Assembly: GCA_030431455.1 (NCBI GenBank)
Contig: JAUIJE010000016.1
Location: 62,001 to 126,000 of the forward strand
DNA: 64,000 nucleotides
Direction of reading: 5' to 3'
Source: a bacterium
GTDB taxonomy: Bacteria; Myxococcota; UBA727; JAUIJE01
Position numbers and translations under genes: made by a program. The notes under the pieces were generated by a model. The model saw only the letters and a program-made list of their open reading frames with translations, did no database searches and had not been told where the DNA came from. Below are positions 17,700 through 19,805 of this stretch, piece after piece; the first letter of the stretch is position 1, and every line of letters starts with the position of its first letter.

Positions 17700-18284
17700 C
17701 TATTCGGTGCCGCTGGGCGCGATGCTCAGGGTCCAGGTCGCGTCCCGGGGGGTGACCTGGCCGAGGTATTTGCCGCTCACCGTGCACTCGACCTCGGTGG
17801 CGAGCTCGTCGATCTCCCGGGCGACCTCCGCCCGGTACACGTGCGCGCAGGGGGCGTCGGCGGTGCAGCGCAGGGAGACGGTGCGCTCGTCGAGGGCTTC
17901 GGCGGACAGGTCCACCGGGACCTGGGGATCCAGGGTGAGGGCGGCGCGCCCGTCGGGGTCACCGAACTCGAGGCGGTCTTGGTGCACACCGTCGGTGGCG
18001 GGCAGGGCCTGGGTCACGAACGTGATCGCGGGCAGCGCCGCGGGCGGGGTGTCCCGCGCGGCGCAACGCACCGACAGGGTCACGGTGAGCTCTGCTTCCC
18101 GCACGGTCTGGTCGTCGGACGAAAAGGTGAACGTCGCCCCCACGCTGGCCGCGGACGCCACCGTGACGGTGTAGGTCCCGCTGTCGTCGACCACACCGTC
18201 GTCGGTGTCCACCGAGGCCACGCTCCCGATCACAAACAGCGCGAGGCACAAGCCGCCGGCGACGGCGGGCGGTGGTTTAGGCAT
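17700..18284 (-). CDS. Hypothetical exported protein, third gene of the zeta-like cluster
   Basis: A 194-residue protein beginning at the ATG at 18284 with a hydrophobic signal or anchor (about 6-25, GGLCLALFVIGSVASV). The rest is predicted beta-rich, with Asp/Thr/Val alternation and four cysteines (in SVRCAAR, LRCTADAPC and EVECTV) that could form disulphides outside the cell. The family is not recognised. Its start overlaps the 60-residue gene by eight bases, so it is translated with the two genes upstream. Confidence 0.78.
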   Translation of the reverse strand: MPKPPPAVAGGLCLALFVIGSVASVDTDDGVVDDSGTYTVTVASAASVGATFTFSSDDQTVREAELTVTLSVRCAARDTPPAALPAITFVTQALPATDGVHQDRLEFGDPDGRAALTLDPQVPVDLSAEALDERTVSLRCTADAPCAHVYRAEVAREIDELATEVECTVSGKYLGQVTPRDATWTLSIAPSGTE

Positions 18285-18459
18285 CGTCGGGCGCGATGGC
18301 GGGCCCTTTGGGCGAGAACTTCGACGGCTTGACCCCCCGGTCCCGTTCGAACTTCTTCTCCTCGATGTCGGCGGCGTCTTCGCGCGCACGTTCGAGGTTC
18401 TCGCGCATCTTGTCCGCGAGGTCGTCCTTGTCGGGGAGGTTCTTGTTGGCGGCGTTCAT
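18277..18459 (-). CDS. Small charged helical protein (60 aa), coupled to zeta-like gene
   Basis: The ATG at 18459 overlaps the stop of the zeta-like gene (ATGA), and its own end overlaps the next start by eight bases. The product is very hydrophilic: an acidic and basic helix (DLADKMRENLERAREDAADIEEKK) followed by a short tail. I do not recognise it. Its size, charge and position right beside a P-loop kinase-like protein make an antitoxin or chaperone role imaginable, but nothing in the sequence proves it. Confidence 0.7.
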   Translation of the reverse strand: MNAANKNLPDKDDLADKMRENLERAREDAADIEEKKFERDRGVKPSKFSPKGPAIAPDDA

Positions 18460-19805
18460 GCCGTCCCCCAGATGCGCGCGCCCATCAGGGCGGCATCGGT
18501 GATCCAGGCCGGCACAAGGTCACTGGATTTGACGTAGGTCGAGAGGTCTTGTTGCAGCGCGCGCCGGTCCTGGCCCGCGGTGCTCGACAGCTGGGCCTTG
18601 GCCCCCGCGGCGTCGAGCACCTCGGGGGGCGAGCCGTTCTTGAGGGTGATGAACTGGCAGCTCTCGTTGCCGGCTTGGGCCTGTTGGAACGCGAGCACGT
18701 TCTTGGCGCTGTCGATGTAGCTGTTGATCGAGACTTCGAGACTCGGTCCGCGGCCCTTCTTTTTCCAGCGCGGCAAGATGCCGAACGACTCGTTTTTCCA
18801 GGCGAACGCGGGGTCGGCGTCGACGTGCACGAAGGTCACGGTGTGGCCGAACTGCTCGCACAGGGCGAGCACCCAGGGCATCTCGGTGGCGGCTTGTTCG
18901 CCGGCCGAGTCCCAGACCGCGTCGACGCTGGAGGCGACTTGGTTGGCGGCCTCGATGTTGCCGATGGCAAAGCCCTTGCCGGCGCCGGTGCCGCCGGTGG
19001 TCATCATCACCGTCGAGCCCGCGGGCAGCTCGGCGAGGGCCTTGGCGAAGGCGGCTTTGGCCAGGGCGTTGGCCGCCTGGTGCACGACGGTGTTGAACGC
19101 GCCGCGGGCCCGCAGCGAGCGCTCCTTGTGGGCGTCGTCGCTCTCCCCGGGCAGGGGCGGGGGGTTGTAGTCCTTGAACAGGAGCTTCACGTCGTCGGTG
19201 TTGAACACGTTGGGGGCGTCCCCGATCTCCCCGGCCGCGCGCCGCTCGGCGTATTCGTCGACGAGCCCGGCGAGGTGCTGTTCGACCATGTCCGCGGTGC
19301 GGGTCTCCACCGCGCGCTCGGTGGCGGTGAGGTTGGGCAGGCGGGGCACCTCGACCGTGCCCAGGGTGGCCACGCCGTCCTTGACCGTCAGCTCGGCCGA
19401 GACCATGCCCGGCAGCCCGACGAGGGCCGCGTCGGTGACCCCGTCGCCGTCCGCGTCGGCCGCGATGTCCACCACGTACGCGGCGCGGCCCGCGGGCGGC
19501 GCGGTGAGGTCGGCGGAGGCCTTGTCCGCCCCCCCGAACTGCAGCATGCCCAGCCGCGCGAGCGCCCCCCCACCGAAGCCCCCGGGCCCCGGGGCGGTGG
19601 TGCCCTTGGCCGCGAACGCCTCGGCGTCCTGGGACATCAACTGGCCCTGGGCCGCTGATTCCTCTTTCTTTTCAGTGGGTTGCGTCTTGGACGAAGGAGG
19701 CGTAGGCCCCGTCTGCTGGACTGCCGTTTGGTCGACAGGCCCGGTGTCGCCGGTGGGCTTGGGCGTGCGGACCGGCAGATGGGGACGGTGACCGGTTGTT
19801 TTCAT
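18456..19805 (-). CDS. Zeta-toxin-like P-loop protein
   Basis: A 449-residue protein. The ATG at 19805 has GGAGG 8 bases upstream. Residues 1-60 are Pro/Thr/Gln-rich and disordered, followed by a Gly-rich patch and a beta region with an Asp-rich DADGDGVTD, perhaps calcium-binding. The C-terminal half has a Walker A-like GGTGAGKG, a preceding VFNTDDVK, VTFVHVDADPAFAW and an RGPSLEVSINSYIDS block. This order is reminiscent of zeta toxins, which phosphorylate UDP-amino sugars. There is no signal peptide. It leads a three-gene coupled cluster. It could be a toxin, an effector or an unrelated nucleotide-binding protein; the fold assignment needs a profile search. Confidence 0.75.
   Translation of the reverse strand: MKTTGHRPHLPVRTPKPTGDTGPVDQTAVQQTGPTPPSSKTQPTEKKEESAAQGQLMSQDAEAFAAKGTTAPGPGGFGGGALARLGMLQFGGADKASADLTAPPAGRAAYVVDIAADADGDGVTDAALVGLPGMVSAELTVKDGVATLGTVEVPRLPNLTATERAVETRTADMVEQHLAGLVDEYAERRAAGEIGDAPNVFNTDDVKLLFKDYNPPPLPGESDDAHKERSLRARGAFNTVVHQAANALAKAAFAKALAELPAGSTVMMTTGGTGAGKGFAIGNIEAANQVASSVDAVWDSAGEQAATEMPWVLALCEQFGHTVTFVHVDADPAFAWKNESFGILPRWKKKGRGPSLEVSINSYIDSAKNVLAFQQAQAGNESCQFITLKNGSPPEVLDAAGAKAQLSSTAGQDRRALQQDLSTYVKSSDLVPAWITDAALMGARIWGTA

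What the first reader, a model, noticed from the sequence alone, without database searches (positions are those of the whole stretch)
17700..19805. Translationally coupled triad: zeta-toxin-like P-loop protein, 60-residue charged helix, exported Cys protein
Three genes overlap (ATGA and 8 bases). The first has a disordered N-terminus, an Asp-rich DADGDGVTD and a C-terminal GGTGAGKG region with zeta-toxin-like following blocks. The second is a tiny highly charged helix, the third a signal-bearing beta-rich protein. Zeta toxins are known with a small antitoxin (epsilon); an arrangement with an exported third partner is not one I know. A toxin-immunity, effector or regulated kinase module is inference.
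Basis: partly seen in the sequence, partly recalled or inferred. Interest (0 to 1): 0.62.

Follow-up and report, generated by a model that had tools for sequence, protein, structure and literature searches.

The report
Phage-type zeta kinase with small partner
Two overlapping genes on a myxobacterium-like chromosome encode a cell-wall-toxin-like kinase and its tiny charged partner; the same gene pair recurs in environmental phages and, in a more distant form, in giant injection-system proteins, so it looks like one toxin-antidote unit found in three settings, while the third gene seems to be a bystander.

Summary
The three ORFs are real (449, 60 and 194 aa, minus strand, 4- and 8-nt overlaps). 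P0001 is a zeta-type kinase. With a 50-sequence alignment its model is confident over residues 101-449, and the best PDB matches are the six gonococcal zeta_1 toxin chains (E about 1e-10, 3.5 A); AvrRxo1 and classical zeta are far weaker. The zeta_1 active-site residues (Asp56, Lys59, Asn75, Lys115, Arg175, Arg181) correspond to D204, K207, N238, K277, R346, R352: the first four invariant in 50 sequences, the two Arg in all 47 that cover them. Relatives: about 60 uncultured tailed-phage loci (often beside or fused with portal, terminase or DarB-like proteins; none in 50,697 GenBank phages); eCIS_core giant proteins; one other stand-alone myxobacterial gene. The 60-aa partner is homologous to short elements directly downstream of several phage kinases (Z 7-9.7), and small charged genes follow five bacterial kinases. 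The third gene is linked nowhere else. Best reading: a chromosomal, phage-type toxin/antidote pair acting on UDP-sugar wall precursors; fold and linkage are shown, substrate and neutralisation inferred. New variant of a known kind.

The parts
18456..19805 (-). P0001, 449-aa zeta_1-type P-loop kinase (candidate toxin)
   Evidence: confident fold for residues 101-449; best PDB match gonococcal zeta_1; active-site residues conserved in 50 homologues.
19545..19805 (-). Disordered Pro/Thr/Lys-rich N-terminal tail of P0001 (residues 1-87)
   Evidence: pLDDT <50 over residues 1-87; not conserved among relatives.
19431..19457 (-). Asp-rich DADGDGVTD (residues 117-125), just before the conserved [AR][LV][VI]G[LVI]P motif
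   Evidence: Conserved in phage relatives (VDADGDGVADAARVGLPG; DxDGDG-like in 26 of 41), absent from the eCIS forms.
19185..19196 (-). D204-x-x-K207: equivalents of zeta_1 catalytic Asp56 and Lys59, upstream of the P-loop
   Evidence: Invariant 50/50; same D-x-x-K-x-L-F spacing as in the zeta_1 chain.
19080..19094 (-). N238-x-x-x-H242: equivalents of zeta_1 Asn75 and His79
   Evidence: Aligned directly by HMMER; invariant 50/50.
18972..18995 (-). Walker A / P-loop GGTGAGKG (residues 271-278; K277 = zeta_1 Lys115)
18750..18770 (-). R346-x5-R352 arginines (zeta_1 Arg175 and Arg181, same spacing of 6)
   Evidence: 47 of 47 sequences that cover the site; spacing from PMC5923241.
18277..18459 (-). 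P0002, 60-aa charged helical partner (candidate antitoxin/immunity protein), ATGA overlap with P0001
   Evidence: homologous to elements downstream of phage kinases: L058 Z=9.7 (45% over 38 aa), L082 Z=7.0, L083 Z=7.9; a profile recruits L068 at 1.9e-5 against decoys.
17700..18284 (-). P0003, 194-aa protein with signal-peptide-like N-terminus; in the operon by position only, probably not part of the module
   Evidence: no linked homologue in the relatives examined; two weak unlinked matches at E 2e-4 and 3e-4.

Best explanation
P0001-P0002 is a stand-alone chromosomal copy of a kinase-plus-partner module. P0001 is a zeta_1-type kinase that binds ATP at its P-loop (K277) and uses D204 as catalytic base, with K207/N238 and R346/R352 holding the substrate; by analogy with gonococcal zeta_1 the substrate is a UDP-activated peptidoglycan precursor (UDP-MurNAc or UDP-GlcNAc), turned into a dead-end phosphate so that wall synthesis stops. 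P0002, made by translational coupling from the ATGA overlap, is a helical peptide that binds and silences the kinase, much as epsilon_1 covers the ATP site of zeta_1. In tailed phages the same pair lies in or beside portal/terminase-linked polyproteins that probably enter the host with the DNA, and in other myxobacteria a more distant form is the C-terminal domain of eCIS-type giant proteins. In the window's genome it is most likely a captured phage-type module acting as an intracellular toxin-antitoxin. P0003 is not part of it. Shown here: ORFs, fold, active-site conservation, homology and linkage of the partner in phages, the phage and eCIS contexts. Inferred: toxicity, substrate, neutralisation, delivery, origin by capture.
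For: AF2 model with a 50-sequence alignment: pTM 0.80, residues 101-449 pLDDT mostly 92-98. Foldseek PDB: six zeta_1 chains at E 3e-11 to 5e-10, probability 1.00, 3.4-3.7 A over 286-302 columns; AvrRxo1 next (3e-4), classical zeta 6e-3 and worse. Profile-to-PDB sequence match to zeta_1 at E 0.0015, aligning Asn75, His79 and Lys115. D204, K207, N238, H242, K277 and D299 invariant in 50/50, R346/R352 in 47/47. Seven of nine members of the first alignment match Pfam Zeta_toxin weakly, best 4e-4. About 60 phage loci; tree split of window plus phage from the eCIS/bacterial forms supported 100/100. Partner homology: Z 7-9.7. A small overlapping or adjacent gene follows the kinase in five bacterial relatives. 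eCIS_core at the N-terminus of two full-length giant forms; eCIS_core in 6 of 7 and sheath in 5 of 6 of the other relatives' genomes searched. Own genome lacks eCIS_core, sheath, T6SS VipB and VirB4, and the flanks are housekeeping genes (L31, DUF1385, RF-1), so no resident prophage or injection system was seen around it.
Against: No activity, toxicity or binding was tested. P0001 alone has no Pfam match. The window branch is long (1.65 changes per column), so its substrate could have changed. P0002 has no detectable homology by direct comparison to the small genes of the eCIS forms (Z=1.1), and the iterated profile that joins them may drift because the sequences are charged. Tight overlaps are also common for other phage ORFs (41 of 89 against 28 of 41), so overlap alone proves little. 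The gene order is toxin first, unlike most epsilon/zeta operons (general knowledge). No coordinates were available to inspect the active site directly.
Confidence: 0.6

Rival explanations
1. An exported antibacterial effector-immunity pair: P0001 is delivered into rivals through its disordered N-terminal tail, and P0002 is the immunity protein.
For: More distant relatives are C-terminal domains of eCIS_core giant proteins; the tail (residues 1-87) is disordered; AvrRxo1 is a delivered zeta-fold effector with a small downstream partner (PMC4938570); zeta-toxin domains occur among T4SS killing effectors (PMC6536674).
Against: G000 and G066, the two genomes with stand-alone forms, lack eCIS_core, contractile sheath, VipB and VirB4. 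No delivery domain in P0001. T3SS and Tad-type killing machines were not tested.
Confidence: 0.15
2. A remnant or domesticated phage module used against phages (superinfection exclusion or abortive infection): kinase release stops wall synthesis on infection.
For: Closest homologues are in tailed phages; zeta-like kinases are known in phage polyvalent proteins (PMC5512222).
Against: No PADLOC match; housekeeping neighbours rather than a defence island; no phage genes seen beside it.
Confidence: 0.1
3. A kinase of the zeta fold with another substrate (NAD, nucleotides or a protein), with P0002 a chaperone or regulatory subunit rather than an antitoxin.
For: AvrRxo1, of related fold, phosphorylates NAD (PMC5491322/PMC5087710) and is the second-best PDB family; the window branch is long.
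Against: Residues that contact UDP-MurNAc in zeta_1 (Lys59, Asn75) are invariant here, 50 of 50; AvrRxo1 superposes badly (12.7 A).
Confidence: 0.1
4. A three-gene unit in which the exported P0003 is a working partner.
For: 8-nt overlap with P0002, same strand and coding-like composition.
Against: No linked P0003 homologue found at the kinase loci examined; only two weak unlinked matches in relatives.
Confidence: 0.05

Closest known systems
ng-epsilon_1/ng-zeta_1 toxin-antitoxin of Neisseria gonorrhoeae (6EPG/6EPH/6EPI; PMC5923241)
   Same: Fold in the same chain order, P-loop towards the C-terminus, catalytic Asp/Lys/Asn before the P-loop, two Arg six apart, a small helical partner.
   Different: About 15% identity; an N-terminal extension with DADGDGVTD; toxin gene comes first; the small-partner profile does not find epsilon_1; activity untested.
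AvrRxo1:Arc1 (Xanthomonas; homologue in Cystobacter; PMC4938570)
   Same: Zeta-fold kinase gene followed by a small partner gene; delivered-effector and TA roles combined; also seen in a myxobacterium.
   Different: Poor superposition (12.7 A); P0002 has no tyrosine, so Arc1's double-tyrosine motif is absent.
Zeta-toxin-like kinases in phage/plasmid polyvalent and MuF-fused proteins (PMC5512222; MuF toxins PMC5576092)
   Same: Zeta-like kinase in portal-associated multidomain phage proteins; small ORFs follow phage toxins.
   Different: That work names the domain only; here a defined zeta_1-type family with a linked partner, fused to or beside the portal, and a chromosomal stand-alone form.
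eCIS-associated toxins with N-terminal DUF4157/eCIS_core (PMC8213781)
   Same: Relatives L021 and L022 have eCIS_core near the N-terminus and this kinase at the C-terminus, separated by a long linker.
   Different: A zeta-type kinase is not mentioned in the two eCIS toxin papers searched; the window form has no eCIS_core.
Classical epsilon/zeta and PezAT
   Same: P-loop kinase fold with a small antitoxin.
   Different: Different order of the catalytic blocks; weaker fold match (E 6e-3, about 12 A).

Membership tests
zeta_1 subclass of zeta toxins | Zeta kinase fold with rewired order (catalytic Asp before the P-loop) | tested here: met
   Foldseek; D204 lies 73 residues before K277, as Asp56 lies 59 before Lys115.
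zeta_1 subclass of zeta toxins | Active-site Asp56, Lys59, Asn75, Lys115, Arg175, Arg181 | tested here: met
   D204, K207, N238, K277, R346, R352; 50/50 or 47/47 conserved. The D/K and R/R equivalences rest on motif and spacing, not on a displayed structural alignment.
zeta_1 subclass of zeta toxins | ATP-dependent 4'-phosphorylation of UDP-sugars; lysis | not testable with these tools
   Needs an enzyme assay.
zeta_1 subclass of zeta toxins | Small cognate antitoxin that binds and neutralises | tested here: inconclusive
   Linked, homologous small partner in phages; binding not testable.
Pfam Zeta_toxin PF06414 | Match above the curated cut-off | tested here: not met
   P0001 no match; relatives weak, best 4e-4.
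AvrRxo1:Arc1 | Arc1-like partner with conserved double tyrosine; AvrRxo1-like fold as best match | tested here: not met
   P0002 contains no Tyr; AvrRxo1 superposes at 12.7 A.
eCIS effector | DUF4157/eCIS_core or an eCIS locus in the genome | tested here: not met
   Not in G000; met by relatives L021/L022.
MuF/polyvalent phage protein | Portal/terminase context or multidomain phage protein | tested here: not met
   Window neighbours are housekeeping; met by phage relatives such as L059, L067, L072, L075.

The most novel reading that the evidence does not exclude
A single zeta_1-type kinase-plus-antidote cassette circulates between phage virion polyproteins, eCIS effectors and bacterial chromosomes, so that one wall-precursor toxin with one type of small inhibitor serves phage entry, bacterial warfare and chromosomal toxin-antitoxin functions, each system loading the kinase already silenced by its partner.
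Probability: 0.3. Interest if true: 0.75.

Novelty: new variant of a known kind. Interest (0 to 1): 0.52.

Why it matters
If right, it joins three fields that treat zeta kinases apart (toxin-antitoxin systems, phage-injected proteins, contractile-injection effectors) with one testable module, describes a family not found in the cultured-phage records searched, and offers a candidate answer to how eCIS producers and phages tolerate such a toxin while making it, a problem that the eCIS toxin survey leaves open (PMC8213781).

Tried and rejected
P0001 alone: no hit in Pfam, NCBIfam or PDB sequences, only a noise-level PHROGs match (E 0.3), and none in GenBank phages by protein search; a phage homologue also finds none there. 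A first viral-contig scan with P0001 alone found nothing; the family profile was needed. Two searches of the phylum found only one other genome with the gene; both score few candidates per genome, so rare divergent copies could be missed. The first 9-sequence model was mediocre (mean pLDDT 62) and was replaced by the 50-sequence one. Direct test of P0002 against the eCIS-form small genes failed; homology was found only through phage elements. Considered and rejected: DADGDGVTD as a defining feature in itself, because it is a local motif present in 26 of 41 phage relatives and absent from the eCIS forms (calcium binding not tested); adenylate kinase, because only local P-loop and lid similarity; P0003 as a partner. 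Co-folding of P0001 with P0002 was not possible with the single-chain tool.

Full report
Observation. The window's minus strand carries three overlapping ORFs at the stated coordinates: 449 aa (18456-19805), 60 aa (18277-18459, ATGA overlap) and 194 aa (17700-18284, 8-nt overlap). Codon-position GC is coding-like and a GGAGG precedes the first gene. The flanks are ordinary: ribosomal protein L31, DUF1385 and RF-1 genes on one side, a histidine kinase on the other.

The kinase. P0001 has no database match on its own (PHROGs only at noise level). Relatives found through one myxobacterial homologue gave a family profile; 7 of 9 members then match Zeta_toxin weakly. The profile found 23 and then 61 viral-contig loci, with 28-43% identity to P0001, the best of them higher than the bacterial forms (29-34%). 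None is found in 50,697 GenBank phage records. With 50 sequences the AF2 model reaches pTM 0.80 and pLDDT mostly 92-98 over residues 101-449; residues 1-87 are disordered. The top six PDB matches are all gonococcal zeta_1 chains, E 3e-11 to 5e-10; AvrRxo1 follows at 3e-4 and classical zeta at 6e-3. Among predicted viral structures the best matches are large proteins of uncultured tailed phages, one already annotated as containing a zeta toxin domain.

Active site. The zeta_1 paper (PMC5923241) names Asp56 (base), Lys59 and Asn75 (UDP-MurNAc contacts), Lys115 (P-loop), Arg175 and Arg181, and notes that two blocks are shuffled relative to classical zeta. HMMER aligns Asn75, His79 and Lys115 with N238, H242 and K277. 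The D-x-x-K-x-L-F motif and the Arg spacing of six match D204/K207 and R346/R352 (my reading of those alignments). D204, K207, N238, H242 and K277 are invariant in 50 of 50; R346 and R352 in 47 of 47 that cover the site.

The partner. Five bacterial relatives have a 61-69 aa charged gene directly after, mostly overlapping, the kinase; these are homologous to one another (L006 leave-one-out E 3e-4, Z 10). P0002 does not match them directly (Z 1.1, p 0.14). It does match the element after phage kinases: L058 Z 9.7 with 45% identity over 38 aa, L082 Z 7.0 and L083 Z 7.9. A profile of P0002, L058 and L082 finds L068's element at 1.9e-5 (19.6 bits; best of 30 shuffled sets 9.9), and two hits that were counted as decoys (L081, L112) lie close to kinases and look like the same element. 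Further iteration also joins the eCIS-form small genes, but with charged sequences that step may be drift. In several phages the element is the N-terminus of the next polyprotein. Tight overlap is only modestly enriched (28 of 41 against 41 of 89 other ORFs), so the sequence homology carries the argument.

Contexts. Phage kinases follow a portal gene (L059, L072), are fused to it (L075), or precede a head protease (L067); upstream ORFs also include terminases and DarB-like proteins. Two giant forms carry eCIS_core near the N-terminus, and most genomes with giant forms carry eCIS_core and a contractile sheath. G000 and G066, the genomes with stand-alone forms, have neither, nor VipB or VirB4. 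The tree separates phage plus window from the eCIS/bacterial forms at 100/100, with a long window branch. It is unrooted, so capture from a phage is an inference.

Known work. Zeta-like kinases in phage polyvalent and MuF-fused proteins are published (PMC5512222); MuF toxins are usually followed by a small ORF (PMC5576092); AvrRxo1:Arc1 is a delivered zeta-fold effector with an antitoxin (PMC4938570). No paper in the library joins zeta toxin with contractile injection and effector, which is a limited search.

Verdict. A zeta_1-type kinase with a conserved linked partner: strongly supported. Toxin and antitoxin functions: likely, untested. P0003: probably a bystander. Novelty lies in the defined family, its partner and its three contexts, not in the fold.

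Noticed in passing
L079 2766-5603: Kinase ORF interrupted by what looks like an intein placed inside the P-loop (GGVAC...HNSGKG), by eye.
   Followed up: no
L063 39-5984 and L065 432-5978: Polyproteins upstream of the kinase domain contain intein-like stretches within SNF2-like helicase regions, by eye.
   Followed up: no
L010 / L023 947-10936: A second zeta domain (PF06414, E 7e-7) follows the first in the same giant protein, followed by an overlapping 92-aa charged ORF.
   Followed up: partly
L008 1617-4004: Kinase ORF with a possible internal start whose N-terminus looks signal-peptide-like (MATPPRSPIAIVALVLIQGVVA), and the small gene in the same frame one codon after the stop; contig labelled Planctomycetaceae.
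   Followed up: partly
L112, L113: Family members on very large viral contigs (407 kb and 363 kb).
   Followed up: no
L004 6128-6814: Giant-form kinase followed by an overlapping Cys-rich zinc-finger-like ORF instead of the usual small gene.
   Followed up: no
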